Source: Quatrionicoccus australiensis (GTDB taxonomy: Bacteria; Pseudomonadota; Gammaproteobacteria; Burkholderiales; Rhodocyclaceae). From it: a DNA stretch of 64,000 bases. A program made the position numbers and the translations under genes. Where the stretch lies: positions 1,178,001-1,242,000 of the forward strand of contig NZ_CP075188.1 of assembly GCF_020510525.1 (NCBI RefSeq). The letters run 5' to 3'. This document shows, one piece after another, positions 9,978 to 63,964 of this stretch. The first letter of the stretch is position 1. Each line of letters begins with the position of its first letter. The notes below the pieces were generated by a model. It was given only the letters and a program-made list of their open reading frames with translations. It did no database searches and was not told the origin of the DNA.

Positions 9978-10007
9978 GCGGTCGACCGCCTGGATTCGCC
10001 AATTTCG
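9978..10007. repeat. GTCGAC-type interspersed repeat, copy 1
   Basis: Perfect 12-bp palindrome GCGGTCGACCGC (9978-9989) followed after about 9 nt by GCCAATTTCG. Located between the divergent creD and diguanylate cyclase genes. Same architecture as the other copies in this window. Confidence 0.55.
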
Positions 10008-10113
10008 TATGCGAGGTGGAAAGCTGCATCAATCGTGACTGTTCGAGTCATCCTTGTTTGGTAACATTGTTGAAAATAATGCGCCCAAGCGCAGCCAGGA
10101 AAGCTCCCCCAAC

Positions 10114-11727
10114 ATGCAAGTTCGTCGTTTCGCCAACAGTCTTGTCGTTCGCGCCGTCCTGGTCGGCGTGCTGATTACCGTGATCGGCACGGTTATTCGC
10201 TTTGCGCTGCTCTCCACCAGCATGCACGACAGCATCGAAGTGACCGTTTCGGCGCATCTGCTGTCCGATGCGAGCTACGTGGCCAAGGACATCGACGAGA
10301 AAATCAACCAGCGCAAGATTCTTCTCGAAACCCTGGCCCGGCAATTGCCGCCTGCCCTGCTCGGCAAGCCGGTGGCGCTCGAGGCCTGGCTGGCCGAGCG
10401 GCATGCGCTGGCGCCGCATTTTTCGCTCGGGCTTGCCGTGCTGCCACCCAACGGCCGGGGCGCACTGGCCGATTACCCGGTTTTGCCGGGGCGGCGACAA
10501 TTCAACTTTGCGATGCTGGACTGGTTCCTGATGGCGCGCGATCAAGGTGGTTTTGCCATTGGCAAGCCGACCGTCGGGCGCATCTCGCATCAGGGAGTCA
10601 TCGCCATGGCGGTGCCCGTGCACGATGCGCAGGGGCATGTGCTGGCGATCATTGCCGGTGCCACGGCGCTCGATGCGCCGGGTTTTCTCAACCTGATCCA
10701 GGGCAACAAGATAGGCTCGACCGGTGGCTTTCTTCTGGTTTCGCCACGGGATCAGCTCTTCGTGACGGCGCTGCAACCGGACATGCGTCTGAAGCCGACG
10801 CCGGCATCCGGCATCAATCCGCTGCACGACCGGGCGATGGCCGGTTGGCGGGGCGTTGGCCGGACGGTCAATGCGGCCGGCGTCGAGGAACTGGCCGGAG
10901 TTGCCAGTGTGCATGCCGCCGACTGGTTCGTCGTCGCCCGCATGCCGACGGCGGAAGCCTTCAGCTCGGTCGACGAGGCGCGCCGCATGTTGCTGAAAAT
11001 CGGCACGGTCGCCGGCGTGATCGTCATCCTGATTTTCGGCGCCGTCTTGTTCCGGCTCTTTCGGCCCTTGCGCGAGGCGGCCCGCCAGATGCACCGGATG
11101 GCCAGTGGTGAGGCACCGCTGGCGCCGCTGGTGCGCGTGCGCCATGACGAAGTCGGCGACATGGTCGATGGCTTCAACTTCCTGGTCGCCCGGGTCAGGG
11201 AAAAGGAGTTGCGCATGACGGAACTGGCGCACCACGACACGCTGACCAGCCTGCCCAATCGTCTTTCCTTCCTCAAGCGGGCGCAGCAGACCGTGGCCCT
11301 GAGCATGCGCCAGAAGGGCCGTCTGGCCCTGATGTTCATCGACCTCGACGGCTTCAAGCCGATCAACGACCGGCACGGCCACGAAGCCGGTGACATGGTC
11401 TTGCAGCAAGTTGCGGTTCGTCTCGGCGAAGGCTTCCGTCAGGCCGACATGGTGGCGCGTTTCGGCGGCGACGAATTCGTCGTGCTGCTGACCGACGTCC
11501 GCGACCGTGAATGCCTGACCCGCATGGCCGACAAGGTCATCGCCCGTCTCTCCGAGCCTTACCTGATCGATGGTGCGAGCTATTCGATCGGCGCCAGCAT
11601 CGGCATCGCCTGCCTGCCCGACGACGCCGAAGACATCGAATCGCTGATCGCCCAGGCCGACGCCGCGATGTACGACGCCAAACGCGCCGGCCGCAACTGC
11701 AGCCGCTTTGCGCATCGGGTGGATTGA
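10114..11727 (+). CDS. Membrane-bound diguanylate cyclase (Cache-HAMP-GGDEF)
   Basis: A 537-residue protein predicted to make cyclic di-GMP. There is an N-terminal membrane segment (~residues 10-30), an extracytoplasmic Cache-like sensor up to ~290, a second membrane segment (VAGVIVILIFGAVLFRLF), a HAMP segment, then a GGDEF domain. The catalytic motif FGGDEF is intact and is preceded by RQAD five residues upstream, a complete RxxD inhibitory site, so product feedback is expected. The ATG at 10114 is preferred over the TTG at 10054 because AGGAAAG lies about 10 nt before it. It is transcribed divergently from creD. Confidence 0.9.
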   Translation: MQVRRFANSLVVRAVLVGVLITVIGTVIRFALLSTSMHDSIEVTVSAHLLSDASYVAKDIDEKINQRKILLETLARQLPPALLGKPVALEAWLAERHALAPHFSLGLAVLPPNGRGALADYPVLPGRRQFNFAMLDWFLMARDQGGFAIGKPTVGRISHQGVIAMAVPVHDAQGHVLAIIAGATALDAPGFLNLIQGNKIGSTGGFLLVSPRDQLFVTALQPDMRLKPTPASGINPLHDRAMAGWRGVGRTVNAAGVEELAGVASVHAADWFVVARMPTAEAFSSVDEARRMLLKIGTVAGVIVILIFGAVLFRLFRPLREAARQMHRMASGEAPLAPLVRVRHDEVGDMVDGFNFLVARVREKELRMTELAHHDTLTSLPNRLSFLKRAQQTVALSMRQKGRLALMFIDLDGFKPINDRHGHEAGDMVLQQVAVRLGEGFRQADMVARFGGDEFVVLLTDVRDRECLTRMADKVIARLSEPYLIDGASYSIGASIGIACLPDDAEDIESLIAQADAAMYDAKRAGRNCSRFAHRVD

Positions 11728-11748
11728 GGCGGGGCTGCGTTACCCGCC
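11728..11748 (+). terminator. Possible hairpin terminator after the diguanylate cyclase
   Basis: GGCGGG and CCCGCC form a short stem around a 9-nt loop right after the stop codon. Only two T residues follow, so intrinsic termination is weakly supported. Confidence 0.3.
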
Positions 11749-11760
11749 TTGAGCATTCGG

Positions 11761-11788
11761 TTGGCATGGCTGTGGGCGGCGCTATATC
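11761..11788 (+). promoter_or_regulatory. Candidate sigma-70 promoter of the hsd locus
   Basis: TTGGCA (11761-11766), a 16-bp spacer, and TATATC (11783-11788). Transcription would start near 11795, downstream of the ATG at 11789, which favours the ATG at 11828 as the hsdR start. Confidence 0.5.
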
Positions 11789-11827
11789 ATGCCGAGCTTG
11801 ACCCATGCGGCACAGGCCGGTTCCCCG

Positions 11828-14329
11828 ATGACCGAAAACCAGAATCCAGAACAACAAGCCCGCGACCGCATCGACGCGCAACTGCGCGCCGCCGGCTGGG
11901 TGGTGCAAGCCAAGAACAAGGTCAATTTTGCTGCCGCAATCGGTGTCGCCGTGCGCGAATGGCAAACCGACGTCGGTCCCGCCGACTACGTGCTCTTCAT
12001 CAACAAGCAGGCGGTCGGCGTCATCGAAGCCAAGCGCGAGGAAGAAGGCCAGCACCTGACCGTGCACGAAACGCAGACCGAAGGCTACGCCGCCGCCAAA
12101 CTCAAGTGGGTCAATAACAAGCAGCCGCTGCCCTTCCTCTACGAAGCAACCGGCATCGTCACCCGCTTTACCGATGGCCGCGACCCCAAGCCACGTTCGC
12201 GTGAAATCTTCAGCTTCCACCGCCCGGAAACCCTGCGCGACTGGCTGACCGAGGATGAAAGCCTGCGCGCCCGCCTCGCCGAGTTGCCTCCGCTCAACCC
12301 CGCGCATCTGCCGGCCGCCCAACTGCGCCTGCGCGATTGCCAGGAAACGGCGATCACCAATCTCGAACAGTCCTTCCGCGAAGCCCGGCCGCGCGCGTTG
12401 ATCCAGATGGCCACCGGGGCCGGCAAGACCTACACCGCCATTACCAGCATCTACCGGCTGTTGAAGCACGCCGACGCCAAGCGCGTGCTCTTCCTGGTCG
12501 ATACCAAGAACCTCGGCGAGCAGGCCGAGCAGGAAATGATGGCCTATGTGCCCATCGACGATAACCGCAAATTCACCGAGCTTTACAGCGTCCAGCGCCT
12601 GAAAAGCAGCTTCGTCGACAAGGGCGCCGACGTCTGCATCTCGACCATCCAGCGCCTCTATTCGCTGTTGCAGGACAAGGAACTTGACGAAGCCGCCGAA
12701 GAAATCAACCCGGCCGAACTGGTCCAGCCGAAAGCGCCTGCGCCCGTCGCCTACAACGCCAAAATCCCGCCCGAGTTCTTCGATTTCATCTTCATCGACG
12801 AATGCCACCGCAGCATCTACAACCTCTGGCAGCAGGTGCTCGACTACTTCGACGCCAGCCTGATCGGCCTCACCGCCACGCCCGACAACCGTACCTACGG
12901 CTTCTTCAAAAAGAACGTCGTCAGCGACTACAGCCATGAAAAGGCCGTCGCCGACGGGGTCAATGTCGGCAATGAAATCTACCTGATCGACACCCTGGTC
13001 ACCCAGCAAGGCGGCGTCATCGCCGCCCAGCAGCAGGTCGAAAAGCGCGAACGCCTGACGCGCAAAAAGCGTTGGGAACAGCAGGACGAAGACGCCGCCT
13101 ACACCGCCAAGCAACTCGACCGCGACATCGTGAACCCGGACCAGATCCGCACCGTCGTCCGCGCCTTCCGCGACAACCTGCCGGCCATCTTCCCCGGTCG
13201 CGAGGAAGTCCCGAAGACCTTGATCTTCGCCAAAACCGACAGCCACGCCGACGACATCATCAACACCGTGCGCGAGGAATTCGGCGAGGGCAACGCTTTC
13301 TGTAAGAAAGTCACCTACCGCGCCACGCAAGACAGAAAACTGCCCGATGGCACGGTCGACCGTGGCGAAGACCCCAAATCCATCCTTGCCCAGTTCCGCA
13401 ACGAATACCACCCGCGCATCGCCGTCACCGTCGACATGATCGCCACCGGCACCGACGTCAAGCCGCTCGAATGCCTGCTCTTCATGCGTGACGTCAAAAG
13501 CCGCAACTACTTCGAGCAGATGAAAGGTCGCGGCACCCGCACGCTGGACATGGACGACCTCAAGAAAGTCACCCCCAGCGCCAAAACCGCCAAGACTCAC
13601 TACGTCATCGTCGACGCCATTGGCGTCACCAAATCGCTGAAGACTGCCAGTCAGCCGCTGATCACCAAGCCCGGCGTGCCGCTCAAGGATCTTGCGATGG
13701 GCATCCTGATGGGCGCCTGCGACACCGACAGCGTCTCCTCGCTGGCCGGTCGCCTGGCCCGGCTCAACAAGCAGCTCGACGCCGACGACCAGCGCCGTCT
13801 GCGCGAAGCGGCCGGCGGCGTCGAACTCAGCCACCTGATCAGCAAACTGTTCAACGCCATCGACGGCGACCTCATCGAAGCCCGCGCCCTCGAACTGGCG
13901 GAATTACCCATCGGCAACGACCCCGGCGACACCTTGCGCGACCAAGCCCAGCAGCAACTGGTCGGCGAAGCCGCGGCGCTGATGAACGGCGAATTCATCG
14001 AACTGATCGACACCATCCGCCGCGAAAAAGAACAGACCATCGACCACGACACCCTCGATCACCTGACCTACGCCGGCTGGAGCCAGGACAGCGCCGCCAA
14101 CGCCGAAGCATTGACCGGCGAATTCGCCGACTGGTTGGCCGCCAACCGGGACGAAATCGAAGCCCTCAGCATCTTCTTCGCCCAACCCTGGCGGCGGCGC
14201 GAGGTCACGCTCAAGCTGGTGCGCCAGGTGCTCGACAAGCTCAAGGCCGACAAACCGAAGTTGGCCCCGCTGCGCATCTGGCAAGCCTACTGCCAGCTGG
14301 ACAGCTACAATGGCGCCCCGCCGGAATAG
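11828..14329 (+). CDS. hsdR: Type I restriction enzyme R subunit HsdR, truncated by an in-frame amber codon
   Basis: The R subunit supplies ATP-driven DNA translocation and cleavage. The 833 residues before the stop include the N-terminal nuclease region (ADYVLFINK...GVIEAKRE, PD-(D/E)xK style, ~residue 50-70), Walker A ATGAGKT (~194), FIFIDECHRSI (~323), LTATP, and the helicase motif QMKGRGTR. A TAG at 14327-14329 ends translation. The same frame then continues without another stop to 14647, giving a full length of 939 codons as expected for an EcoEI/EcoAI-like HsdR. The truncated product would lack the C-terminal assembly domain, so restriction is probably impaired unless the amber is read through. 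Confidence 0.9.
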   Translation: MTENQNPEQQARDRIDAQLRAAGWVVQAKNKVNFAAAIGVAVREWQTDVGPADYVLFINKQAVGVIEAKREEEGQHLTVHETQTEGYAAAKLKWVNNKQPLPFLYEATGIVTRFTDGRDPKPRSREIFSFHRPETLRDWLTEDESLRARLAELPPLNPAHLPAAQLRLRDCQETAITNLEQSFREARPRALIQMATGAGKTYTAITSIYRLLKHADAKRVLFLVDTKNLGEQAEQEMMAYVPIDDNRKFTELYSVQRLKSSFVDKGADVCISTIQRLYSLLQDKELDEAAEEINPAELVQPKAPAPVAYNAKIPPEFFDFIFIDECHRSIYNLWQQVLDYFDASLIGLTATPDNRTYGFFKKNVVSDYSHEKAVADGVNVGNEIYLIDTLVTQQGGVIAAQQQVEKRERLTRKKRWEQQDEDAAYTAKQLDRDIVNPDQIRTVVRAFRDNLPAIFPGREEVPKTLIFAKTDSHADDIINTVREEFGEGNAFCKKVTYRATQDRKLPDGTVDRGEDPKSILAQFRNEYHPRIAVTVDMIATGTDVKPLECLLFMRDVKSRNYFEQMKGRGTRTLDMDDLKKVTPSAKTAKTHYVIVDAIGVTKSLKTASQPLITKPGVPLKDLAMGILMGACDTDSVSSLAGRLARLNKQLDADDQRRLREAAGGVELSHLISKLFNAIDGDLIEARALELAELPIGNDPGDTLRDQAQQQLVGEAAALMNGEFIELIDTIRREKEQTIDHDTLDHLTYAGWSQDSAANAEALTGEFADWLAANRDEIEALSIFFAQPWRRREVTLKLVRQVLDKLKADKPKLAPLRIWQAYCQLDSYNGAPPE

Positions 14330-14647
14330 GAACTGACCGCGCTGGTCGCCCTGATCCGCCGCGTCTGCGGCCTGGACGCCAAAATCACCCCATTCGCCGA
14401 CACCGTGCGCAAGAACTTCCAGACCTGGATCATGCAGCACCACGCCGGCGGCACCGACAAATTCAACGAAGAACAGATGAACTGGCTACGCATGCTCCGC
14501 GACCATATTTGCCACTCCTGCCACGTCGACCGTAACGATCTTGAGCTTCCTCCCTTTGGTCAGGGCGGGCTGGGGAAGATGTGGCAATTGTTCGGCGAGG
14601 GCATGGACCCGCTGCTGGATGAACTGAATGAGGCGTTGGTGGCGTGA
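14330..14647 (+). pseudogene. hsdR: Detached C-terminal part of hsdR
   Basis: Directly continues the hsdR frame after the TAG. It encodes ELTALVALIRRVCGLDAK, NFQTWIMQHHAG, FNEEQMNWLRMLRDHI and QGGLGKMWQLFGEGM, typical of the EcoEI-type HsdR C-terminal domain that contacts HsdM/HsdS. No ribosome-binding site stands out before its first ATG (14405). The terminal TGA overlaps the hsdS start (GTGATG), showing that the original operon coupling is preserved and that the amber is a point change, not a rearrangement. Confidence 0.85.
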
Positions 14648-16170
14648 TGGGTGCGGCTGCGTTGCCAGAAAGCTGGTGTGTTGCAACCCTGAATGACATT
14701 GCGCAACCTTTTGGCGGCTCAACACCGTCCAAAATTGACGCCTCCTTATGGAGCGATGGAACTGTGCCTTGGGTTTCGCCCAAGGACATGAAGGTTTTTG
14801 ATTTACGGGGAAGCGAAGATTTAGTTTCCGAAAAAGCCTTGGCAAGACTGTCACTGATTCCCGAGGGCAGCATTTTGGTTGTGGTCCGTTCTGGCATCCT
14901 TTCGCGCATCCTTCCCGTAGCGATCAACCATCTGCCAGTGACGATCAATCAGGACATGCGTGCTTTTGTTCCGGCCCCCGAAATCAGCGCAAGATTCATT
15001 GCGTGGCAGTTGTTGGCAAATCAGCGTGAAATTCTTGGCAAGTGCTCGAAAGATGGCACTACCGTGGCGAGCATCGAAGCGGTTGCGTTGGCCTCATTTC
15101 CCTTCGCGCTGCCTCCCGCCGCTGAACAACACCGCATCGTCGCCAAGATCGAGGAACTGTTTTCCGAACTCGATCAGGGCGTGGCCAGCCTGAAAACTGC
15201 CCGCGAACAACTCAAGGTCTATCGCCAGTCGCTGCTCAAAAATGCCTTCGAGGGCAAGTTGACCGCTGCCTGGCGCGCCGCCCACCGCGACCAGCTCGAA
15301 ACCGCCACCGCCCTGCAACAACGCATCGCCCGCGAACGCGAAGCCCGCTACCAGCAACAACTCGCCGACTGGCAAGCCGCCGGCCAAGCAGGCCCCAAAC
15401 CCAAATTCCCCAAGCTCCTGCCACCGCTCACTGCCGAAGAACTCGCCGAGTTGCCTGAATTGCCGGGAGGATGGGGATGGATTCGAGTTGGTGAGTTGGT
15501 CGACCGAGTAACGGTCGGTTACGTAGGCCCTATGAAGAACGAATACATCGAACAAGGGGTGCCATTTTTGCGTTCGCAGAATGTTCGAGAAAACCGTTTT
15601 GATTCCGAAGGCTTAAAGTTCGTATCAGAAAGATTCCATCAGTCCTTGAGCAAGTCCGCCTTGTCTGCGGGGGATGTGGTCGTGGTTCGGTCAGGCTCTG
15701 TTGGCGTTTCTTGTGTGATCCCTGAGCATCTGGGTGAGGCAAATTGCTCTGACCTTGTTATTGTCAAAGCGCCGCGACATGTTTCCTCGCATTTGTTGGC
15801 CTACTACATGAACTGGCAAACGCAGGGGCGCGTAAAACAAAAGATGGTTGGGGTTGCGTTGATTCACTTCAATACCAAGTCCGTTGAAGGTTTTGCCTAT
15901 CCGCTTTGCAGTGAGCAAGAACAGCAACAAATAGAAAAACTGCTTGCTGAAAAACTCTCCGAAGCCGACCAACTCGAACTAACCCTCGCCACCGCGCTGC
16001 AACAGGCCGACGCGCTGCGCCAGTCCATCCTGAAAAAGGCTTTCCACGGTCAACTGGTAAAACAGGCCAAAAACGAAGAACCCGCCACCACCCTGCTCGA
16101 ACGCATCCGCACCGCGCGTTCCGCCAACCAACCGGCCCGCCGTGGCCGTTCTGCCGGGAGCCAGCCATGA
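14647..16170 (+). CDS. hsdS: Type I specificity subunit HsdS
   Basis: Recognises the split DNA target and bridges HsdM and HsdR. The 507-residue protein has two target-recognition domains (residues ~5-160 and ~270-420), each followed by a conserved helical spacer. LPPAAEQHRIVAKIEELFSE precedes the first helix and CSEQEQQQIEKLLAEKL the second; SLLKNAFEGKLT and SILKKAFHGQLV are the paired repeats. The gene appears intact. Start is ATG 14647 (or GTG 14644), overlapping the end of the hsdR frame. Specificity cannot be read from sequence. Confidence 0.93.
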   Translation: MGAAALPESWCVATLNDIAQPFGGSTPSKIDASLWSDGTVPWVSPKDMKVFDLRGSEDLVSEKALARLSLIPEGSILVVVRSGILSRILPVAINHLPVTINQDMRAFVPAPEISARFIAWQLLANQREILGKCSKDGTTVASIEAVALASFPFALPPAAEQHRIVAKIEELFSELDQGVASLKTAREQLKVYRQSLLKNAFEGKLTAAWRAAHRDQLETATALQQRIAREREARYQQQLADWQAAGQAGPKPKFPKLLPPLTAEELAELPELPGGWGWIRVGELVDRVTVGYVGPMKNEYIEQGVPFLRSQNVRENRFDSEGLKFVSERFHQSLSKSALSAGDVVVVRSGSVGVSCVIPEHLGEANCSDLVIVKAPRHVSSHLLAYYMNWQTQGRVKQKMVGVALIHFNTKSVEGFAYPLCSEQEQQQIEKLLAEKLSEADQLELTLATALQQADALRQSILKKAFHGQLVKQAKNEEPATTLLERIRTARSANQPARRGRSAGSQP

Positions 16171-17533: not shown

Positions 17534-19015
17534 ATGAACGCAACCGCATCCATCGTCTCCCGTGTCTGGAGCTTCTGTACCACGCTGCGCGACGACGGGG
17601 TCAGCTATGGCGACTATCTGGAGCAGCTTACTTATCTTATCTTCCTGAAAATGGCCGATGAATACGGTCGACCGCCCTACAACCGCAAAATCGGCATTCC
17701 CGAAAACCTCGGCTGGAGTAGCCTGAAGGCAGTGCGCGGGGCTGCGCTGGAGGTGCATTACGTGACGGCGCTGCGCGAACTGGGCAACAAGCCGGGGTTG
17801 CTCGGGCAGATTTTCACCAAGGCGCAGAACAAGATTCAGGACCCGGCCAAGCTGTCGCGGCTGATCGACATGGTCGACGAAACCAGTTGGGTGACGCTGG
17901 GGGCGGACGTCAAGGGTGACATCTACGAAGGCCTGCTCGAGCGCAATGCCGAGGATACGAAGTCGGGCGCCGGGCAATACTTCACGCCGCGGCCGCTGAT
18001 CCGGGCGATGGTGGAATGCGTGCGGCCGCTGCCGAACAAGACGATTGCCGACCCGGCCTGCGGTACGGGCGGCTTCTTCCTCGCCGCCTACGATTTTCTG
18101 GTCGCCACCTATCCGGGTATGGACAGCGAACAGCGCGCTTTCCTCAAGCATGAGACGTTTTTCGGCAACGAGATTGTCGCCGGCACGCGCCGTCTCGCCT
18201 TGATGAACATGTTCCTGCACAACATCGGCGAGATCGACGGTGACAGCCCGATTTCGCCGAACGATGCCTTGGTGGCTGCGCCGGCCCAGACCTTCGACTA
18301 CGTGCTGGCCAACCCGCCCTTTGGCAAGAAGAGCAGCATGAGCTTCACCAACGAGGAGGGCGAGCAGGAAACCGATGCGCTGACCTACAACCGTCAGGAT
18401 TTCTGGGCGACGACCTCGAACAAGCAGCTCAATTTCGTGCAGCACATCAAGAGCCTGTTGAAGAGCACCGGCCGCGCCGCCGTGGTGGTGCCGGACAATG
18501 TGCTGTTCGAAGGCGGGGCGGGCGAGACGGTGCGCCGCAAGCTGCTCGAAACGACCGATCTGCACACCATCCTGCGCCTGCCGACGGGGATTTTCTACGC
18601 CAACGGCGTCAAGGCCAACGTGCTGTTCTTCGACAACCAGCCGGCGAGGAAGGAAGCGTGGACGCGGGAAGTCTGGGTCTACGACTACCGCACCAACATC
18701 CACCACACGCTGAAAAAGAAGCCGCTGCGCTACGAGGATTTGAAGGATTTCGTCGCTTGCTACCAGCCGCTGAACCGCTTCGAGCGCGCCGAAACCTGGC
18801 ACGAGACGCAAAACCCGGAAGGCCGCTGGCGCAAGTTCAGCTACGAGCAGATCGTTGCCCGCGACAAGACCAGCCTGGATATTTTCTGGTTGAAAGACAA
18901 GAGCCTGGCCGACCTCGATAACCTGCCCGAACCGGATGATCTGGCCGGCGAAATTATCGAAAACCTGGAGGCCGGGCTGGCCAGTTTCCGGGCGGTGGCG
19001 GCGGCTTTGGCGTAA
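17534..19015 (+). CDS. hsdM: Type I modification methyltransferase subunit HsdM
   Basis: N6-adenine methyltransferase that protects host DNA. The 493-residue protein has the N-terminal HsdM helical region (SYGDYLEQLTYLIFLKMADE), the SAM-binding motif ADPACGTGGFFLAAYD (~172) and the catalytic NPPF (ANPPFGKKS, ~259), and ends in helices used for HsdS contact. It looks fully functional. It stands last in the locus and has its own AT-rich upstream region, so it can be expressed separately from hsdR-hsdS, which would suit protective methylation before restriction. Confidence 0.94.
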   Translation: MNATASIVSRVWSFCTTLRDDGVSYGDYLEQLTYLIFLKMADEYGRPPYNRKIGIPENLGWSSLKAVRGAALEVHYVTALRELGNKPGLLGQIFTKAQNKIQDPAKLSRLIDMVDETSWVTLGADVKGDIYEGLLERNAEDTKSGAGQYFTPRPLIRAMVECVRPLPNKTIADPACGTGGFFLAAYDFLVATYPGMDSEQRAFLKHETFFGNEIVAGTRRLALMNMFLHNIGEIDGDSPISPNDALVAAPAQTFDYVLANPPFGKKSSMSFTNEEGEQETDALTYNRQDFWATTSNKQLNFVQHIKSLLKSTGRAAVVVPDNVLFEGGAGETVRRKLLETTDLHTILRLPTGIFYANGVKANVLFFDNQPARKEAWTREVWVYDYRTNIHHTLKKKPLRYEDLKDFVACYQPLNRFERAETWHETQNPEGRWRKFSYEQIVARDKTSLDIFWLKDKSLADLDNLPEPDDLAGEIIENLEAGLASFRAVAAALA

Positions 19016-19410: not shown

Positions 19411-19459
19411 TTTTGCCCGGTTTTTAGCGGTCGACCGCTGTGAGACAGCATTTTTGCCC
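19411..19459. repeat. GTCGAC-type interspersed repeat, copy 2
   Basis: TTTTGCCCGGTTTTTA, then the palindrome GCGGTCGACCGC (19427-19438), about 10 nt, then GCATTTTTGCCC. It has T-rich arms on both sides. Located between the divergent cupin and VOC genes. Confidence 0.65.
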
Positions 19460-19952: not shown

Positions 19953-21227
<1,275 letters not shown>

Positions 21228-24895: not shown

Positions 24896-26323
24896 TCAAA
24901 CCATCGCCAGCCGAATCCACGCCACTCCGCCACCCTCCGGATGATTCGCAAACCCCGCTTCGCCGCCATGCAGCCTGGCCACTTCGCGCACCAGCGCCAG
25001 CCCCAGGCCGGTGCTTTTTTTGCCGGTGGCCGGGCGGGGCAGGGAATAGAAGCGCTCGAACAGTTGCGGCAGGGCGTAGTCGGGGGCGCCGGTGCCATGG
25101 TCGCGGATGCGGATTTCGGCCTCGTCTTCGCCAACTTCGAGCGTGATTTCGATGCGGCCGCCGTCGGGTGAGAATTCGATGGCGTTGTCGAGCAGGTTGA
25201 GGACGGCCTGTTGCAGCAAAAAGGCATCGCCACGCAGGTCGACCGCTGCAGGGGCATCGAGTTGGCAATCAAGGTGGCGGGCATCGAGGAACTGGCGGCG
25301 CAGTTCGATCGTGGTTTTGAGCATTTTGGCGAGGTCGACCGTCGCGCCGCCTTCAGGGGCCTGCAGTTGTTCGACGCGGGCGAGCATCAGCATGCGCTCG
25401 ATGATGGCCTGCAGGCGACGGGCCTGTTCGCCGATGCTGTCGGCGAATTTGCGGCGGTCGGCGGCGGGCAGTTCGTCCTCGAGGATTTCGGCGGCGCCGA
25501 TCACCGCGGTGAGCGGGCTTTTCATTTCGTGCGCGAGGTTCTGCACGTAGCGTTCGACGTATTGCTTGCCTTCGAGCTTTTCGCGCATCTGGCCCAGCGC
25601 GCGGGCGAGTTCGGAAAACTGGTGGCCGCCGCCGGTCGGCGGTTCGACCTTGCGGCCGTCGGCGACGGCGCGGGCGTAGGCGCGCAGGCGGTGGATGGAC
25701 CAGCTCAGCCAGCCCGAGAAGAAGAGGCCGATGGCGGCGGTGGCGGCGAGCAGCCAGAAGCCGGATTGCTTGACGCGTGCCGTGGCGCGGCTGATGTAGG
25801 GGGCGAGCGAGGACATCGGCTTGGCGACCGAGAGCACGCCGATGCGTTCGCCCTGCCAGAAGATGGGGGCGGCGACGTACATCACCGAGGAGTAGGGATC
25901 GTCCGGGTCGTCCAGCGTGCTGCGCGCGCCGTATTCGCCGCGCAGGACGCGGGCGATGTCGCGCCATTGCGAGTAATCCTCGCCGAGCGCGGCGTGTTCG
26001 GAGTCGTAGACGACGATGCCCCTGGCGTCGGTGACATAGACGCGGAAGTCGATGCTTTCCTTGTGCACGCCGGCGATGTCGGCACGCGGGCTGCGCCGGG
26101 TGGCGGCGCGCAGCGAGGCGGCGAAGCTGCCCTGGTTGATGCGTCCGGTCGACAGTTCGAGGGCGGCCATTTCGGCCAGCACGTGCGCCGTGTCGACCAG
26201 GGTTTCCTCGGTTGCCTGGCGGATGCCGGGCTCGGTTTCGCGGTTGATGACGGTAAGCACGAACCAGGCGGCCAGGCCGACCACCAGGAAGTAACCGAAA
26301 AACAGGCGGACCGAGACGTTCAC
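24896..26323 (-). CDS. creC: Sensor histidine kinase CreC
   Basis: Partner of CreB. The 475-residue protein starts at GTG 26323. It has two membrane segments (~8-25 and ~185-202) around a periplasmic sensor, then a HAMP-like region and the kinase core. The phospho-accepting H box is VQNLAHEMKSPLTAVIGAAE, followed by NLLDNAIEFSPDGG (N box), RDHGTG and TGLGLALVREV (G boxes). The sequence around the His and the sensor (ESIDFRVYVTDARGIVVYDS) is characteristic of CreC. The gene follows creB after 7 nt. Confidence 0.92.
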   Translation of the reverse strand: MNVSVRLFFGYFLVVGLAAWFVLTVINRETEPGIRQATEETLVDTAHVLAEMAALELSTGRINQGSFAASLRAATRRSPRADIAGVHKESIDFRVYVTDARGIVVYDSEHAALGEDYSQWRDIARVLRGEYGARSTLDDPDDPYSSVMYVAAPIFWQGERIGVLSVAKPMSSLAPYISRATARVKQSGFWLLAATAAIGLFFSGWLSWSIHRLRAYARAVADGRKVEPPTGGGHQFSELARALGQMREKLEGKQYVERYVQNLAHEMKSPLTAVIGAAEILEDELPAADRRKFADSIGEQARRLQAIIERMLMLARVEQLQAPEGGATVDLAKMLKTTIELRRQFLDARHLDCQLDAPAAVDLRGDAFLLQQAVLNLLDNAIEFSPDGGRIEITLEVGEDEAEIRIRDHGTGAPDYALPQLFERFYSLPRPATGKKSTGLGLALVREVARLHGGEAGFANHPEGGGVAWIRLAMV

Positions 26324-26330
26324 CGCAGTC

Positions 26331-27020
26331 TCAGTCGGCCGTCACGCTGTAACCGAGGCCGCGGTGGGTCTGGATGCAGTCGGCGGTGGCGTCGATGGCG
26401 CGCAGCTTGCCGCGCAGGGTCTTGATGTGGGTGTCCACGGTGCGCTCGAAACTCTCGCCGCTGTCCTGCCAGACGCTTTCCATGATCTGGGCGCGGTTCA
26501 GGATGCGGCCCGGCCGCTCAAGCAGCTGCGCCAGCAGCAGGTATTCGTAACGCGTCAGGTTCAGCCACTGGCCGTGGTAGGCGATGCGCAGGCCATCCCG
26601 GTCGACGGCAAAACGGGCACTTTTTTCCGGTCGACCGTCAGAAATGCCTGTTTTTGCTTCCGGCCGCAGGCGGCGCAGGATGGCGCGGATGCGCGAGACG
26701 ACTTCGCGCGGGCTGAACGGTTTGGCAACGTAATCGTCGCCGCCCAGCTCAAGGCCGACGATGCGGTCCACCTCGTCGGTACGTGCGGTCAGGAATAGCA
26801 CGGGAATATCGGAAAAGCGGCGCAACTGGCGGCAGACGTCGAAACCGTTCAGGTCGGGCAGGCCGACATCGAGTACGACCAGGTCGTGTGCGCCGTCCTG
26901 CAACATGGCCAGCGCCGCACTGCCCAGCGTGCAGCTGTCGGCCGTGAAGCCGTCGGCGCGCAGCGCGTAGGCCAGGGTTTCGGAAATGGCGGGTTCGTCG
27001 TCGACGATCAGGATTTTCAT
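26331..27020 (-). CDS. creB: Response regulator CreB
   Basis: OmpR/PhoB-type regulator of 229 residues from MKILIVDDEP (27020; an ATG at 27038 would add six residues). The phosphoacceptor is Asp51 (LVVLDVGLPD), with Thr78 and Lys100 also in place. A winged-helix domain spans ~145-229 (RYEYLLLAQLLERPGRILNR, ERTVDTHIKTLRGKL, RGLGYSV). Residues ~122-141, the interdomain linker, are encoded by two back-to-back copies of the window's GTCGAC repeat. The expected target sequence TTCAC-N6-TTCAC occurs before creD. Confidence 0.92.
   Translation of the reverse strand: MKILIVDDEPAISETLAYALRADGFTADSCTLGSAALAMLQDGAHDLVVLDVGLPDLNGFDVCRQLRRFSDIPVLFLTARTDEVDRIVGLELGGDDYVAKPFSPREVVSRIRAILRRLRPEAKTGISDGRPEKSARFAVDRDGLRIAYHGQWLNLTRYEYLLLAQLLERPGRILNRAQIMESVWQDSGESFERTVDTHIKTLRGKLRAIDATADCIQTHRGLGYSVTAD
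26599..26657. repeat. GTCGAC-type interspersed repeat, copy 3 (within creB linker)
   Basis: CGGTCGACGGCAAAACGGGC followed by CTTTTTTCCGGTCGACCG, 8 nt, then GCCTGTTTTTGC: two tandem units. It lies in frame between the receiver and DNA-binding domains of CreB. Confidence 0.6.
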
Positions 27021-50743: not shown

Positions 50744-51447
50744 TGCGCTGGCTGGTCATCCTGCTGGTGCTCAGCCTGTCGGCCTGTTCGACGCGCCTTG
50801 GCAAGGATGGCCGGACCGAGACTACGGTCGACGCCAAATATCTGATCAAAACCGAGGTCGACCGGATCGCCGATACCGGGCGTGCCGAAGTCATGGGCGG
50901 CCTGATGCTGATTGCCGACAAGCTCTACAAGCGCAATCCCAAGGAATGGAAAAAGGCGGGTCTGGCCAGCCGCGAGGCGGCGCTCGAGCGCCTGAGCCTG
51001 CGCAACCAGCGCAGCTGGCCGGAACTGGCCGGGGCGCGCGAAGGGCCGGCGGCGGCGCTGGCTTTCAGCGAGACGTTCAGTGGCGACCGGGTCGCGGCGT
51101 TGATGTTCGGGCTGTTCAGCATGGCCGACGCGGCTTTCGAGCACAAGGAAGAGTTCTACATCCTCGACGGCCTGAACGAGATCAAGCTCTACAACTGCGC
51201 CCGCAACATGGAGGTGGCGATCTGGAAACTCAGCCAGGACAAGAACTCGCTCGGTGAGCCTTATCTGCTGTCGAACGAGCTCGATCCGGCCAGGCGCAAT
51301 CTTTCCTTCGAGCGCGAGTTCGGGCGCCTGATGGGCATTCTCGATTTTATGGCCAAGGTCGTTGCCGACCGCAATGGCCGCAATTTATCCCGGCTGACCC
51401 AGACGGTGGTCGGCTCGATCTTTTTACCGGTGAGTTTTTTGAAATGA
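50743..51447 (+). CDS. Predicted lipoprotein of unknown function
   Basis: A 234-residue product beginning MRWLVILLVLSLSACSTRLG, a lipoprotein signal with lipobox LSAC (Cys15). The mature part is mostly helical (TEVDRIADTGRAEVMGGLML, FGLFSMADAAFEHKEEFYIL, RRNLSFEREFGRLMGILDFM). I do not recognise the family. It overlaps dedA by 1 nt and purN by 4 nt, so it is co-translated with both, although no functional link is obvious. Confidence 0.8.
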   Translation: MRWLVILLVLSLSACSTRLGKDGRTETTVDAKYLIKTEVDRIADTGRAEVMGGLMLIADKLYKRNPKEWKKAGLASREAALERLSLRNQRSWPELAGAREGPAAALAFSETFSGDRVAALMFGLFSMADAAFEHKEEFYILDGLNEIKLYNCARNMEVAIWKLSQDKNSLGEPYLLSNELDPARRNLSFEREFGRLMGILDFMAKVVADRNGRNLSRLTQTVVGSIFLPVSFLK

Positions 51448-52091
51448 AGAATATCGTCATCCTGATTTCCGGCCGCGGCAGCAACATGGAAGCCCTGATC
51501 GCCGCCCGCGATGCCGGCAATCTGCCGGTCAACATCGCTGCCGTGATCAGCAACCGGCCGGATGCCAAGGGGCTGGAGACGGCGATGAAGGCCGGTATTG
51601 CCACGCATTACATCGACCACAAGGCATTCGCCGGGCGCGAGGCTTTCGATGCCGCGCTGGCCGAATGCATCGACGGCTTTGCGCCGGATCTGGTTGTGCT
51701 CGCCGGTTTCATGCGCATCCTCAGCGAGGGCTTCGTGCGCCATTACGAAGGTCGGCTGATGAATATCCATCCTTCGCTGCTGCCGTCCTTTCCTGGCCTG
51801 CACACGCACCAGCGGGCGCTGGAGGAGGGCGTGCGCATTCACGGCTGCACCGTGCATTTTGTCACGCCGACCCTCGATCACGGCCCGGTCATCATCCAGG
51901 CTGCCGTGCCGGTGCTTGATGCGGATGATGAAGATGCCCTCGCCGCCCGCATCCTGGTGCAGGAACACAAGATCTATCCGCAGGCCGTGCGCTGGTTTGC
52001 CGAAGATCGCCTGCGTCTGGAAAACGGCCGTGTACGCCTGTCGACCGCCCTGGCTGACAGCAGTGTGCTGATTTCGCCCGAGATTCGCTGA
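51444..52091 (+). CDS. purN: Phosphoribosylglycinamide formyltransferase
   Basis: Third step of purine synthesis: formylates GAR using 10-formyl-tetrahydrofolate. The 215-residue protein has the family signature ILISGRGSNMEALI, VISNRPDAKGLE, VVLAGFMRILSEGFV, the catalytic segment MNIHPSLLPSFPGLHTHQRA (Asn and His), and GCTVHFVTPTLDHGPVI with the catalytic Asp. Length is normal. Confidence 0.96.
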   Translation: MKNIVILISGRGSNMEALIAARDAGNLPVNIAAVISNRPDAKGLETAMKAGIATHYIDHKAFAGREAFDAALAECIDGFAPDLVVLAGFMRILSEGFVRHYEGRLMNIHPSLLPSFPGLHTHQRALEEGVRIHGCTVHFVTPTLDHGPVIIQAAVPVLDADDEDALAARILVQEHKIYPQAVRWFAEDRLRLENGRVRLSTALADSSVLISPEIR

Positions 52092-52097: not shown

Positions 52098-53075
52098 ATG
52101 CCCTTTGCCCTGGTTGTCGCATTTGCCGGTTCGTTGGCGCTGCACGCCCTGGCCTTGTTCGGCACCGATCTTGAATTGCCTGGCAGCGAGCCGGAGCCGC
52201 TGGTGCTGCATGCCGAACTGCGCATGCCCTTGCCGCCGCCCGCCGTGCCGGATCCGGTGCAAGCGGCGCGCGAAAAAAAGCCGCGGCCGCTCAAGAAAGT
52301 ACCGCTGACCCGTGCCGCACCGGATGCCGTGAGCCTGGCGCCGGCGCCGGAACTCTTGCCGGTGGAGGAAGCGCCGCCGGAGGAGCAAGCGCCCGAAGTG
52401 TCGACATCGCCGCTGCCGACCGAGCCGCTGCTGCCGGCCAGTGGTGCGATTCGCTACGCGGTCTACAAGACCTCGCTCGGTATGCAGGTCGGGCGCGCCG
52501 AGCATCGCTGGGAGTTCGACGGCGAAGGACATTACCGTCTGACGGCCTTTACCGAAACCAGCGGCCTGGTGGCCTTGATCAAGCCGGTGCGCGTCGACAT
52601 GGAAAGCCGCGGCCGGCTGCTTGCCGGCGGTCTGCAGCCGGAGAGCTATCGCACCTGGAAAAAAAGCGGTGACGAGGAAAATGCTGATTTTGACTGGTCG
52701 ACCGGTCAGGTGCGCCTCAGTCGCGATGGCGGCGTTGCCAACATCGTGCCGGGGACGCAGGACCTGCTGTCGCTGATCTACCAGCTGGCCTACCTGCCGC
52801 ACCCGGAGGAGGGCGGTAGCATCGGTGTCGTCACCGGTCGCAAGTACGACCGCTACGAACTCGACTCGCATGGTGAAGAGCTGATCGAGGTGCCTGCCGG
52901 GCAATTCCTTACCCTGCATTTGCGCGCCGTGGCCGGTGGAACCATAACGGAAATCTGGATTGCGCTCGATGACTCGCGCTTGCCGGTTAAAATTCGCTTT
53001 ACGGATAAAAAGGGCGACAGCTTTGATCAGGTCGCTACAGAAATTGCAATGAAGGTCGAACCGCCTCAACCGTGA
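52098..53075 (+). CDS. DUF3108 domain protein
   Basis: A 325-residue protein with an N-terminal membrane anchor (FALVVAFAGSLALHALALFG), a Pro/Glu-rich stretch (~45-110) reminiscent of TonB-type periplasmic spacers, and a C-terminal DUF3108 domain (IRYAVYKTSLGMQVGRAEHR, GHYRLTAFTETSGLVALIKP, SRLPVKIRFTDKKGDSFDQV). DUF3108 proteins are periplasmic with no established activity. It begins 6 nt after purN, the usual context in several betaproteobacteria as recalled. Confidence 0.85.
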   Translation: MPFALVVAFAGSLALHALALFGTDLELPGSEPEPLVLHAELRMPLPPPAVPDPVQAAREKKPRPLKKVPLTRAAPDAVSLAPAPELLPVEEAPPEEQAPEVSTSPLPTEPLLPASGAIRYAVYKTSLGMQVGRAEHRWEFDGEGHYRLTAFTETSGLVALIKPVRVDMESRGRLLAGGLQPESYRTWKKSGDEENADFDWSTGQVRLSRDGGVANIVPGTQDLLSLIYQLAYLPHPEEGGSIGVVTGRKYDRYELDSHGEELIEVPAGQFLTLHLRAVAGGTITEIWIALDDSRLPVKIRFTDKKGDSFDQVATEIAMKVEPPQP

Positions 53076-53132: not shown

Positions 53133-54398
53133 ATGATGAAAGCTCGCTTTACGCCCGCCCTGTTTGCCCACGCCGAAGCTGTGATCGGCCAGTTGTTGCG
53201 CTTCGAGCACCCGGCCGACGCCGTTGTCTCGCGCTACTTCCGCGATCACCGCGAACTGGGCCACGCCGACCGCGCCTTCGTTGCCGAGACGGTCTTCGCC
53301 GTGCTGCGCCGCGGCCGCAGTCTGGAAGCACGCTGCGCCGGCCAGCTGTCGGATCGTCACCTGCTGCTCGTCGCGCTCGCCGTGACACGCGGCTGGAACC
53401 AGCGCGAACTGGCACCGGTGCTGCGTGCCAACGAGGAAGAATGGCTGGCCACTGCCCGCGCCATGCCGGACAGCGAATTTTCGCCGGCGGTGCGCTGCGA
53501 CCTGCCGGACTGGCTGTACAACAAGCTGGAAGCCCAGTTCGGCGCCGAGGAAACGGAAAAGCTGGCGCACGCGCTGAATCAGCCGGCGCCGCTCGACCTG
53601 CGCGTCAATACGCTGAAGACCAATCGCGATGCGGTGCTCGCCCGCTTTGCCGAAGAAGGCATTGGCGCCGCTGCCGGGCCGCTCTCGCCGACCGCCATTC
53701 GCCTGCGCGAAAAGCCGGCGCTGGCCAAGCATGCGCTCTTCCTCGAAGGCGCTTTCGAAGTGCAGGACGAAGGCAGCCAGTTGCTCGGCTACCTGCTCGA
53801 ACCGCGCCGCGGCGAGATGGTGGTCGATTTCTGCGCCGGCGCCGGCGGCAAGACGCTGCTGCTCGGCGCGCTGATGAAGAACACCGGTCGTCTCTACGCC
53901 TTCGACGTGTCCGACAAGCGCCTCGTCAAGCTCAAGCCGCGCCTGGCGCGCTCTGGCCTGTCCAACGTGCATCCGGCCCGTATCGAGCACGAGCGCGACC
54001 AGAAGATCAAGCGCCTGTCCGGCAAGGCCGACCGCGTGCTGGTCGATGCGCCGTGTTCCGGCCTCGGCACCCTGCGCCGCAATCCCGACCTGAAATGGCG
54101 GCAGAGCGAGGAATCGGTTGCCGAACTGACCGTCAAGCAGGCCGCCATCCTCGATTCGGCGGCGCGCCTGGTACGCCCGGGCGGGCGTCTGGTTTATGCC
54201 ACCTGCAGCCTGTTGACCGCTGAAAACGATGCGATCGTCGAGGACTTCCTGGCGAAGCATCCGGAATTCACGCTGACGCCGGCGTCGACCGTGCTGGCCA
54301 AGCATGGCATCGAGTTCTCCGGCGACCTGCTGCGCCTCTTGCCCAACCAGCACAACACCGACGGTTTCTTCGCCGCCGTTCTCGACCGGAAAGCATGA
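53133..54398 (+). CDS. RsmB/NOP-family RNA (cytosine-5) methyltransferase
   Basis: Predicted rRNA m5C methyltransferase of 421 residues. A helical N-terminal region (~1-140) resembles the NusB-like part of RsmB. The SAM-dependent core has VVDFCAGAGGKTLLLGAL (motif I), ADRVLVDAPCSGLGTLRRNP (motif IV with the release Cys) and VYATCSLLTAEND (motif VI with the catalytic Cys). It could be a paralogue of RsmB rather than RsmB itself, so no symbol is given. The stop overlaps the mscS start (ATGA). Confidence 0.85.
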   Translation: MMKARFTPALFAHAEAVIGQLLRFEHPADAVVSRYFRDHRELGHADRAFVAETVFAVLRRGRSLEARCAGQLSDRHLLLVALAVTRGWNQRELAPVLRANEEEWLATARAMPDSEFSPAVRCDLPDWLYNKLEAQFGAEETEKLAHALNQPAPLDLRVNTLKTNRDAVLARFAEEGIGAAAGPLSPTAIRLREKPALAKHALFLEGAFEVQDEGSQLLGYLLEPRRGEMVVDFCAGAGGKTLLLGALMKNTGRLYAFDVSDKRLVKLKPRLARSGLSNVHPARIEHERDQKIKRLSGKADRVLVDAPCSGLGTLRRNPDLKWRQSEESVAELTVKQAAILDSAARLVRPGGRLVYATCSLLTAENDAIVEDFLAKHPEFTLTPASTVLAKHGIEFSGDLLRLLPNQHNTDGFFAAVLDRKA

Positions 54399-59243: not shown

Positions 59244-59266
59244 GTCGAAAGCTGGAGGATGCCGAA

Positions 59267-59434: not shown

Positions 59435-59453
59435 TTTACTTATCCTTCCTTAA

Positions 59454-59687: not shown

Positions 59688-59724
59688 GATTGGTGCTCCA
59701 GAATTCGCTAGAAGAAAGCCCGCG

Positions 59725-59753
59725 ATTTTACGAATAAGCCACGGTAATTTCAA
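59725..59753 (-). promoter_or_regulatory. rpmB-rpmG promoter
   Basis: On the minus strand TTGAAA (59753-59748), a 17-bp spacer and TAAAAT (59730-59725): 5/6 matches in both boxes, ideal spacing, 38 bp before the rpmB start. Confidence 0.8.
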
Positions 59754-59769
59754 GTACTTTTTGCTTTTT

Positions 59770-60450: not shown

Positions 60451-60496
60451 GCTAATTCCAGTAAAATGGAAAGGCTCTCATTCTAATGGCAAGACA

Positions 60497-62135: not shown

Positions 62136-62143
62136 GCAAATAT

Positions 62144-62383
62144 TTAGTGCGCGGGGTGCAGCGCCGCGTTCAGATGGTCGATGACTTCCGCCCAGGCGGC
62201 ATCGACCAGGATTTCCTCACGCAGGAAAGTGGCCTGGGCCGGGCTCCAGAACGGGGCATCGGCCAGGCGGGCCGGTTCGGGTAGCGGGCCGTGCGTTTCG
62301 ATGAAGCGCGCGATGTCCGCATCTTCCGACGGCAATCCCAATTGGGCGAACAGATTGCGCATGCTGTGGCTGTGGGTTTCCAT
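62144..62383 (-). CDS. DUF2789 family protein
   Basis: 79 residues, METHSHSMRNLFAQLGLPSE, ARLADAPFWSPAQATFLREE, AAWAEVIDHLNAAL: a small helical protein of the DUF2789 family, function unknown. The stop lies 8 nt past the convergent dut stop. Confidence 0.85.
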   Translation of the reverse strand: METHSHSMRNLFAQLGLPSEDADIARFIETHGPLPEPARLADAPFWSPAQATFLREEILVDAAWAEVIDHLNAALHPAH

Positions 62384-62462
62384 GGCTGACCTCGATGTGA
62401 TTGTTTGTTGCGGCGGCCGAATGTGGCGTGCTGCAGGTTGGAGTCCGGCGCGCCGGCAAAGT

Positions 62463-63863
62463 TCATGACGCCGTCAGCGGCGTAGCGGTCGACGCCGGCT
62501 GCAGCATGTTTTCCGGGCGCACCCATTGCGCGTACTCGGCGGCCGTCAGGTAGCCCAGGGCCAGTGCCGCTTCTTCCAGTGTCGATGCGTCGCGCTGCGC
62601 CTTCTTGGCGATCTCCGCCGCCCGGTCGTAGCCGATGTGCGGCGTCAGTGCCGTGACCAGCATCAGCGAGCGTTGCAGCAGTTCGGTGATGCGTTCGCGG
62701 TTGGCCGTGATGCCGCGCGCGCAGTGCTGCTCGAAGCTGCGCATGCCGTCGGCGAGCAGGCGGATGCTGAAGAGGAAGTTGTGGGCGATCAGCGGCTTGC
62801 AGACATTAAGTTCGAAATTGCCGGCCGCGCCGCCCATACTGATCGCCACGTCGTTGGCCATAACCTGGATGCAGGCCATGGCGAGCGCCTCGCTTTGCGT
62901 CGGGTTGACCTTGCCGGGCATGATCGAACTGCCCGGCTCGTTTTCGGGCAGGGCAATTTCGCCCAGTCCGGCACGTGGACCGCTGGCCAGCCAGCGAATG
63001 TCGTTGGCGATCTTGCTGAGTGCAACCGCCAGCACCTTGAGGCCGCCATGTACGGCGACCATCGCGTCGTGCCCGGCCAGGGCCGCGAACTTGTTGCCGG
63101 CGCTGGTGAAGAGCAGTCTGCTGCGCTGAGCGACCTCGGTCGCAACGCGCCTCCCGAATTCCGGGTGCGTGTTGAGGCCGGTGCCGACCGCCGTGCCGCC
63201 CACGGCGAGCGGGTAAAGCGCCGGCAGCAGCACGTCGATTACGCTTTGCGCCTGATCGAGTTGCGCGACGTAGCCGGAAAATTCCTGGCCCAGCGTCAGT
63301 GGCGTCGCGTCCTGCAAATGCGTGCGGCCGATCTTGATGATGCTGGCGAATTCGCCGGCTTTGGCGTCCAGCGTGTGGCGCAGGGCGCTCAGCGCCGGCA
63401 GCAGTTGCTGCACGATGCCGGTCGCCGCGGCGACGTGCATGGCGCTCGGGAACATGTCGTTCGAGGATTGCCCGAGATTGACCGCATCGTTGGGATGCAC
63501 AGGCTGTCCGAGTTGCTCTCCGGCAAGGCGGGCGAGCACTTCGTTCACGTTCATGTTGGTCTGCGTGCCGGAACCGGTTTGCCAGACGGAGAGCGGGAAT
63601 TCGGCGGCGTATTCGCCCTTTGCCACGGCGTCGCCGGCAGCGGCGATGGCGGACGCCGTGTCCGGCGGCAGCAGGCCGAGTTCACCATTGACGCGGGCGG
63701 CAGCGGCCTTGAGCAGGGCGAGGGCGCGGATCAGTTCCTCCGGCATGCGCTCGCGGGAGATGGCGAAATGCTGCAGCGAGCGCTGCGTCTGGGCGCCCCA
63801 CAGATGCTCGGCGGGAACCTCGATGGCGCCGAAGGCGTCGTGTTCGGTGCGGGTGTTGCGCAT
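62463..63863 (-). CDS. fumC: Class II fumarate hydratase
   Basis: Interconverts fumarate and malate in the TCA cycle without an Fe-S cluster. The 466-residue protein has [78 protein letters not shown] and the signature [11 protein letters not shown]. The C-terminal tail ([16 protein letters not shown]) is partly encoded by a GTCGAC repeat. GAGG precedes the ATG. Confidence 0.95.
62485..62513. repeat. GTCGAC-type interspersed repeat, copy 8 (fumC tail)
   Basis: GCGGTCGACGC, about 8 nt, then GCATGTTTTCC. It encodes the final residues of FumC, beyond the conserved fold. Confidence 0.4.
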
Positions 63864-63921
63864 GGCTGGCCTCGCTTTCTCCCTATTAAGAGAGCGTTGC
63901 CGGCCGGAGGTTCAGAAATCG

Positions 63922-63964
63922 TGCCTTTTTACCGGTCGACCGTCTGGCGCGGCCGTTTTTCGCC
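63922..63964. repeat. GTCGAC-type interspersed repeat, copy 9
   Basis: GCCTTTTTA, CCGGTCGACCG (63932-63942), 9 nt, GCCGTTTTTCGCC. It has T-rich arms on both sides like copy 2. Intergenic, upstream of fumC. Confidence 0.65.

What the first reader, a model, noticed from the sequence alone, without database searches (positions are those of the whole stretch)
9978..63964. A dispersed repeat family built on CGGTCGACCG with spaced T/A-rich arms
At least nine places share one layout: palindrome SCGGTCGACCGS (sometimes one half degenerate), usually 8-12 nt of unconserved sequence, then GCC/GCN with a T4-5 or A4-5 run and GCC. The best copies (19411-19459, 63922-63964, 26599-26657) also have a left arm GCCnnTTTTTA. 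Copies: 9978, 19411, 26599, 34269, 41574, 41758, 58646, 62485, 63922. The combination of a fixed core, T-run arms and intergenic preference is not explained by codon use. It could be a REP-like element mobilised by a RAYT-type transposase, a nucleoid-protein site, or an uptake-like sequence. The T-run arms next to an inverted repeat also resemble paired terminators.
Basis: partly seen in the sequence, partly recalled or inferred. Interest (0 to 1): 0.72.

Follow-up and report, generated by a model that had tools for sequence, protein, structure and literature searches.

The report
Self-DNA uptake tag in Dechloromonas
This bacterium, probably a Dechloromonas, carries hundreds to thousands of copies of one roughly 30-letter DNA tag that looks like the 'take up DNA of my own kind' signals known from two other bacterial families; it would be a third case, but no uptake experiment has been done.

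Summary
The repeat family is real and larger than reported. The unit is an asymmetric, discontinuous motif of about 34 nt: an A/T tract at -20..-16, a weaker T tract at -10..-7, a core GTYGACCG, then (own dialect) CT(G/A). The palindrome CGGTCGACCG is two such units facing each other and sharing one core. The window holds 42 strict matches (0.04 expected); the genome holds 723+736, against 2+1 for the reversed pattern. In an 864-kb sample 503 of 628 matrix sites lie inside genes, on both strands, in Poisson spread and without replication polarity.

Of 76 genomes of the genus, 40 carry it at 150-780 per strand, 9 are intermediate and 27 near background. No other genus in a 399-genome sample of the order carries it. 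Own sites are kept at orthologous places in 89 of 195 pairs with motif-positive species but 7 of 125 with motif-negative ones. Three other positive species show other dialects 3' of the core.

Best reading: an uptake signal sequence for natural transformation, built like the Pasteurellaceae USS but with another core, in a third family. The receptor is unknown and uptake untested. REP/RAYT and terminators are not supported.

The parts
548..575 (-). uptake-signal-like site (strict match)
6094..6121 (+). uptake-signal-like site (strict match)
6829..6856 (-). uptake-signal-like site (strict match)
7274..7301 (-). uptake-signal-like site (strict match)
9218..9245 (-). uptake-signal-like site (strict match)
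13335..13380 (.). two opposed sites sharing core CGGTCGACCG
14505..14532 (+). uptake-signal-like site (strict match)
15238..15265 (+). uptake-signal-like site (strict match)
16047..16074 (-). uptake-signal-like site (strict match)
17647..17692 (.). two opposed sites sharing core CGGTCGACCG
20217..20244 (+). uptake-signal-like site (strict match)
25218..25245 (+). uptake-signal-like site (strict match)
25314..25341 (+). uptake-signal-like site (strict match)
26146..26173 (-). uptake-signal-like site (strict match)
26628..26655 (-). uptake-signal-like site; an opposed partner on + is found by the matrix (core at 26630)
30112..30139 (+). uptake-signal-like site (strict match)
33775..33802 (-). 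uptake-signal-like site (strict match)
34716..34743 (-). uptake-signal-like site (strict match)
38525..38552 (+). uptake-signal-like site (strict match)
42121..42148 (+). uptake-signal-like site inside mutL
46524..46551 (-). uptake-signal-like site (strict match)
50825..50864 (.). two opposed sites with overlapping A/T tracts
52020..52047 (+). uptake-signal-like site (strict match)
52677..52704 (+). uptake-signal-like site (strict match)
54192..54219 (+). uptake-signal-like site (strict match)
54264..54291 (+). uptake-signal-like site (strict match)

Best explanation
The repeats are an uptake signal sequence for natural transformation. SHOWN: a discontinuous motif (A/T tract, a weaker T tract about one helical turn on, core GTYGACCG, species-specific 3' extension) is scattered through the genome at about 0.7 per kb, inside and outside genes, on both strands; it is kept at orthologous places in species that have it, is missing or decayed where the species lacks it, and differs in dialect between species. 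INFERRED: a surface DNA receptor, most likely a type IV minor pilin (FimT- or ComP/PilE-like), binds DNA carrying the motif, reading the core and using the phased A/T tracts as bendable narrow-groove contacts; pilus retraction brings the DNA in, ComEC passes one strand, and homologous recombination installs it. Because motif-bearing alleles are taken up more often, the motif accumulates by biased uptake (molecular drive) and marks DNA of the same kind. CGGTCGACCG double sites are two such signals facing each other.
For: Whole genome: 723+736 strict matches against 2+1 for the reversed pattern. A/T run at -19 in 349 of 639 cores; reversed control core flat. Geometry: A/T tract centre 9-10 nt from the T tract, which lies about 12 nt from the core centre, like the USS with its core and two AT-rich regions (PMC12616744). 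Both strands equal, no polarity between GC-skew arms (165/161 and 156/146), variance/mean 1.10 among 32 samples above 61% GC. Genus-limited and bimodal: 40 positive, 9 intermediate, 27 near background of 76; absent in the other genera of a 399-genome sample. Retention at orthologous places 89 of 195 (positive), 7 of 55 (intermediate), 7 of 125 (negative), with random positions equally conserved in positive and negative pairs; per own site, positive higher in 11, lower in 1, tied in 9 of 21. Distinct dialects in G030, G031, G024 and own. Machinery: ComEC; operon PilY1-FimT-PilV-PilW-PilX-PilE whose last pilin is in Pfam ComP_DUS, 68 bits against a cut-off of 27.3.
Against: No uptake or binding experiment. 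No receptor gene follows the motif: ComP_DUS-family pilins occur in 39 of 40 positive, 7 of 9 intermediate and 24 of 27 negative genomes; close FimT relatives (at least 50% identity) occur in 5 other positive genomes and 1 negative one only; pilin charge and cysteine counts show no difference (weak). Own ComP-like pilin has 2 cysteines (sequence) where Neisseria ComP needs two disulfides. ComEC in one open frame of 750 aa or more: 15 of 19 positive, 9 of 15 negative, 1 of 2 intermediate, so loss of the motif is not explained by loss of ComEC. Other competence genes (DprA, ComEA, PilQ) were not searched. The pilus operon itself is free of sites over 9.6 kb. The GC trend of site density may partly reflect the motif's own G+C-rich core.
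Confidence: 0.76

Rival explanations
1. Binding site of a chromosome-organising or nucleoid-associated protein that some species of the genus have.
For: Phased A/T tracts around a near-palindromic core are typical of DNA-bending sites (own knowledge); genus-limited presence.
Against: No polarity, no ori/ter pattern, Poisson spread among the 32 samples above 61% GC. About 0.7 sites per kb within genes with dialects is easier to explain by biased uptake than by selection on each site (inference).
Confidence: 0.12
2. Sequence-biased repair, methylation or mutation process that writes an over-represented word (HIP1-like).
For: Palindromic core containing GTCGAC; mostly in coding DNA.
Against: Such a process would not add A/T tracts at fixed distances of about one and two turns or species dialects on one side.
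Confidence: 0.06
3. REP-like element mobilised by a RAYT or other transposase.
For: Dispersed near-palindromes; two Y1-transposase hits in the genome.
Against: Sites arise by substitution: 107 of 138 align gap-free with motif-negative orthologs (random positions 97%). No shared sequence beyond the motif. 503 of 628 genic. No site in the 3.4-kb locus of one Y1 hit, three ordinary ones at the other, which carries an inner TAG.
Confidence: 0.02
4. Bidirectional intrinsic terminators.
For: 28 of 46 double sites are not in called genes, 7 of them between convergent genes; one, L040:19277, has 16-nt arms with T/A flanks.
Against: Only 4 of 72 exact palindromes have arms of 9 nt or more; 503 of 628 sites are genic. 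At most a secondary use, as stated for inverted USS/DUS (PMC12616744).
Confidence: 0.03

Closest known systems
Pasteurellaceae uptake signal sequence (Hin-USS, Apl-USS)
   Same: Core plus two AT-rich regions about one and two helical turns to one side, total about 30 nt; many copies in and between genes; inverted pairs; dialects (PMC12616744 introduction; PMC7811141 passages).
   Different: Invariant part here is GTYGACCG (complement CGGTCRAC), not the USS inner core GCGG: the G031 dialect lacks GCGG. A/T tracts lie several bases farther from the core. Found in a betaproteobacterium.
Neisseriaceae DNA uptake sequence (DUS)
   Same: Genome-wide repeat with species dialects, missing from some relatives; a betaproteobacterial family (PMC3630211 passages).
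   Different: DUS is continuous, up to about 13 nt; this motif is discontinuous. The DUS inner core CTG is not shared by all dialects here (G031: CCGTCA/CCGTGA).
REP elements with RAYT transposases
   Same: Dispersed near-palindromic repeats (definition recalled).
   Different: Mostly inside genes, arise by substitution, no linked RAYT.
HIP1 of cyanobacteria
   Same: Highly repeated palindrome, largely in coding DNA (recalled, no call).
   Different: Here the core is coupled to spaced A/T tracts on one side and to dialects.

Membership tests
Uptake signal sequences as a functional class (USS, DUS) | Hundreds to thousands of copies genome-wide, far above chance | tested here: met
   723+736 strict matches against 2+1 reversed
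Uptake signal sequences as a functional class (USS, DUS) | Copies in coding and non-coding DNA, both orientations | tested here: met
   503 genic (223 with, 280 against the gene's strand) and 125 intergenic of 628
Uptake signal sequences as a functional class (USS, DUS) | Dialects between related species with a conserved inner core | tested here: met
   Four species compared: own, G030, G031, G024; the 8-nt core was fixed by the search, the 3' extension was not
Uptake signal sequences as a functional class (USS, DUS) | Increases DNA binding, uptake or transformation | not testable with these tools
   needs competent cells
Uptake signal sequences as a functional class (USS, DUS) | A cognate surface receptor | tested here: inconclusive
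   FimT and ComP_DUS-family pilins present, but neither follows the motif across the genus
Uptake signal sequences as a functional class (USS, DUS) | Competence machinery | tested here: inconclusive
   ComEC and a minor-pilin operon present; DprA, ComEA and PilQ not searched
Pasteurellaceae USS | Core plus two AT-rich tracts one and two turns to one side | tested here: met
   with PMC12616744
Pasteurellaceae USS | Inner core GCGG | tested here: not met
   G031 dialect GTYGACCGT lacks it
Neisseriaceae DUS | Continuous motif with inner core CTG | tested here: not met
   discontinuous; CTG frequent in the own dialect only
Neisseria ComP receptor | Two disulfides (four cysteines) | tested here: not met
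   own pilin has two cysteines; requirement from PMC12616744 passage
REP/RAYT | Whole units inserted at new sites | tested here: not met
   107 of 138 gap-free against motif-negative orthologs
REP/RAYT | Linked RAYT transposase | tested here: not met
Polar or macrodomain chromosome sites (KOPS, Chi, matS; recalled) | Replication-strand polarity or confinement to a domain | tested here: not met
   41 sampled regions

The most novel reading that the evidence does not exclude
A third bacterial family has independently evolved a self-DNA uptake signal: a USS-like discontinuous motif with its own core, with dialects between species of one genus and repeated loss, so that one genus with isolates in culture holds the states with, eroding and without.
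Probability: 0.7. Interest if true: 0.9.

Novelty: new variant of a known kind. Interest (0 to 1): 0.83.

Why it matters
[quoted passage not shown] A third case with USS-like geometry would suggest that the layout of a core plus phased A/T tracts evolved more than once, would allow receptor hunting by comparing 40 motif-positive with 27 motif-negative congeners, and would let the open question of why uptake specificity arises and is lost be tested within one genus. It would also mean that gene exchange in these bacteria is channelled towards their own kind.

Tried and rejected
RAYT/REP: two Y1_Tnp hits, loci ordinary, orthologs mostly gap-free. Terminators: 4 of 72 palindromes with arms of 9 nt or more. 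Polar or domain sites: no bias. Known RNA families: no hit in the window at gathering thresholds. Receptor: FimT distribution, PF16732 distribution, charge and cysteines of pilins in fetched loci (22 of 30 ComP-like and 15 of 30 FimT loci gave a pilin-like frame, and several of those are the wrong, longer neighbouring frame, so weak) and PDB sequence matches (ordinary pilins) gave no gene that follows the motif. ComEC intactness: 15 of 19 positive, 9 of 15 negative, 1 of 2 intermediate genomes; a weak trend. G035's split ComEC may be a sequencing error, since its MutL is split too. A different motif in four motif-negative congeners (100 kb each): none coupled to an A/T tract except a weak 6-of-29 word in G018 at a distant offset. 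A scan of the named genome collection with a narrow own-dialect pattern returned two contigs of one MAG, CTSoil_122; records near the window's genome may be left out there, so it does not measure distribution. The first k-mer run read only 6 of the 40 stretches by a loading mistake and was replaced. A search of papers for the core letters listed 6 of 873, all with other titles (primers, by guess), and was of no use.

The classes are my cut-offs: positive at least 150 on each strand, negative at most 26 on each, intermediate between (G097, 34/15, is put there). The MutL tree (30 rows) has only 8 of 27 inner branches well supported, so losses are not counted. Ortholog pairs are not independent.
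Full report
WHAT IS THERE. The window is G000:C1:1178001-1242000 of a single 4.17-Mb contig. A matrix trained by iteration on 864 kb (the window plus 40 stretches of 20 kb) gives this unit: G/C at -21, five A/T-rich positions at -20..-16, a loose GCC at -14..-12, a weak T tract at -10..-7, core GTYGACCG at 0..7, then C, T, G/A. At 12 bits it finds 628 sites against 29 in an order-3 Markov control of equal length; they lie at 582 distinct places. The matrix was trained on the same DNA, so independent checks matter. The fixed pattern RWWWW-N15-GTYGACCG occurs 723+736 times in the whole genome against 2+1 reversed, and 42 times in the window against 0.04 in shuffles. A run of four A/T begins at -19 in 349 of 639 cores, and the reversed control core shows no peak. 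Logos show little beyond about -24..+14.

THE PALINDROME. GTCGACCG and its reverse complement overlap in CGGTCGACCG; 46 places are two opposed matrix sites two bases apart. CGGTCGACCG occurs 321 times in the genome, against 43 for the sequence read backwards, and is the commonest 10-base palindrome of the sample, 72 copies. Of the double sites 28 of 46 are outside called genes (one at a stretch edge), against 69 of 536 single sites.

PLACEMENT. With a home-made gene caller (84% coding, 770 genes), 503 of 628 sites are genic, 223 on the gene's strand and 280 opposite; 125 are intergenic, 20% against 16% expected. Sites are spread fairly evenly along genes, the counts among 32 samples above 61% GC have variance/mean 1.10, and the two GC-skew arms have equal strands (165/161 and 156/146). 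Density rises with GC, from 2 sites in 24 two-kb bins below 54% GC to about 1 per kb above 63%. This suits scarcity in recently acquired DNA but may partly reflect the motif's own G+C-rich core. One 20-kb stretch at 60% GC (L045) has no site at all.

WHO HAS IT. Among 76 genomes of the genus (own included), 40 have at least 150 matches per strand (156-781), 9 are intermediate (15-71) and 27 have at most 26; the reversed control is 0-7 in every one. In 399 genomes sampled from the order (158 genera, own genus included with 6 genomes), only the own genus rings; other genera reach at most 17 per strand, and seven genomes of six other genera of the same family reach 0-4. The genus name is an inference: a pilin in the homolog search lies on a contig of 3,457,400 bases, the length of G030:C1, and is named by NCBI as from Dechloromonas denitrif... 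(cut off in the listing).

HOW IT EVOLVES. In MutL of 30 congeners (16 positive, 3 intermediate, 11 negative), a site of 10 bits or more lies at alignment column 355 in 12 of 16 positive species and at column 438 in 13 of 16, with tract and core kept while the bases between differ. Of the 11 negative species 10 have none, and G029 has both with altered cores; two of the three intermediate ones have none, and the third has one weak match elsewhere. Over 350 ortholog pairs (139 own genes, at least 60% identity and 75% length), own genic sites of at least 15 bits score at least 12 bits within 3 nt of the same place in 89 of 195 positive, 7 of 55 intermediate and 7 of 125 negative pairs; random positions in the same pairs have about 0.8 identity in both groups. 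Site density in the orthologs is 0.65, 0.17 and 0.09 per kb, against 0.74 in the own genes. Pairs are not independent: with one vote per own site, 21 sites have both kinds of ortholog, and positive retention is higher in 11, lower in 1 and tied in 9. In negative orthologs 107 of 138 sites align without a gap, so sites come and go mainly by substitution; at random positions 97% do, so sites favour variable stretches. More than half of the own sites are thus not shared even with positive species. Positive and negative species interleave in the MutL tree, which suggests an old motif lost several times, but support is modest.

DIALECTS. The core was fixed by the search; the 3' extension was not. 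Among cores with an A/T tract, the commonest next three bases are: own CTG 87 and CTA 32 of 453; G030 CAG 14 of 52; G031 TCA 16 and TGA 10 of 58; G024 CAA 5, CGG 4 and CAG 4 of 20. Four motif-negative genomes (100 kb each) show no A/T-coupled word of comparable strength.

MECHANISM. The layout matches what is published for the Pasteurellaceae USS: a 9-nt core and two AT-rich regions downstream, up to 32 nt, with dialects and inverted pairs (PMC12616744, introduction read in full, and passages; PMC7811141, passages). Neisserial DUS also has dialects and is absent from some relatives (PMC3630211, passages). The genome has ComEC and an operon PilY1-FimT-PilV-PilW-PilX-PilE whose last pilin is in Pfam ComP_DUS, 68 bits against a cut-off of 27.3. 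None of this proves uptake. The same Pfam family occurs in 39 of 40 positive, 7 of 9 intermediate and 24 of 27 negative genomes, and an intact ComEC in 15 of 19 positive and 9 of 15 negative ones. I therefore rate the uptake reading at 0.76 and leave the receptor open.

NOVELTY. PMC12616744 says that only Neisseriaceae and Pasteurellaceae are known to discriminate by such motifs. Searches of the held library for 'uptake sequence' with Rhodocyclaceae and with Dechloromonas found no paper. 'DNA uptake sequence' with Burkholderiales found one, on N. meningitidis mutants (listing only). Subscription papers and preprints are not held, so an earlier report elsewhere is possible.

Noticed in passing
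L176:4805-14423 (near G000:C1 1,320,800-1,330,400): The minor-pilin operon (PilY1-FimT-PilV-PilW-PilX-PilE) and its flank are free of sites over 9.6 kb, though about seven would be expected at the mean density.
   Followed up: partly
L045 (G000:C1:2900001-2920000): 20 kb at 60% GC without one site; three of its four proteins... two of four scanned in Pfam had domains (CHAD/CYTH; GGDEF with PAS) and two had none; 8 of 10 had no PHROG match. Possibly a recent arrival.
   Followed up: partly
own-genome sample outside the window, place not determined: A CRISPR-like repeat around CCCCGCGTTCGCGGGG, about 90 copies of its 12-mers in the 864-kb sample; its 16-nt centre is not in L057.
   Followed up: no
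window 11828-14329 and 17534-19015 (+): Type I restriction-modification genes: HsdR-like and HsdM-like proteins.
   Followed up: no
L072, L073: MAG CTSoil_122, titled only Proteobacteria bacterium, carries the own-dialect motif (8 matrix sites in the 8 kb of L073 and 3 in L072), so it may belong to this genus.
   Followed up: no
G035 (L269 and ComEC place): In this single-contig genome both MutL and ComEC are split between frames, which suggests sequencing indels rather than gene loss.
   Followed up: no
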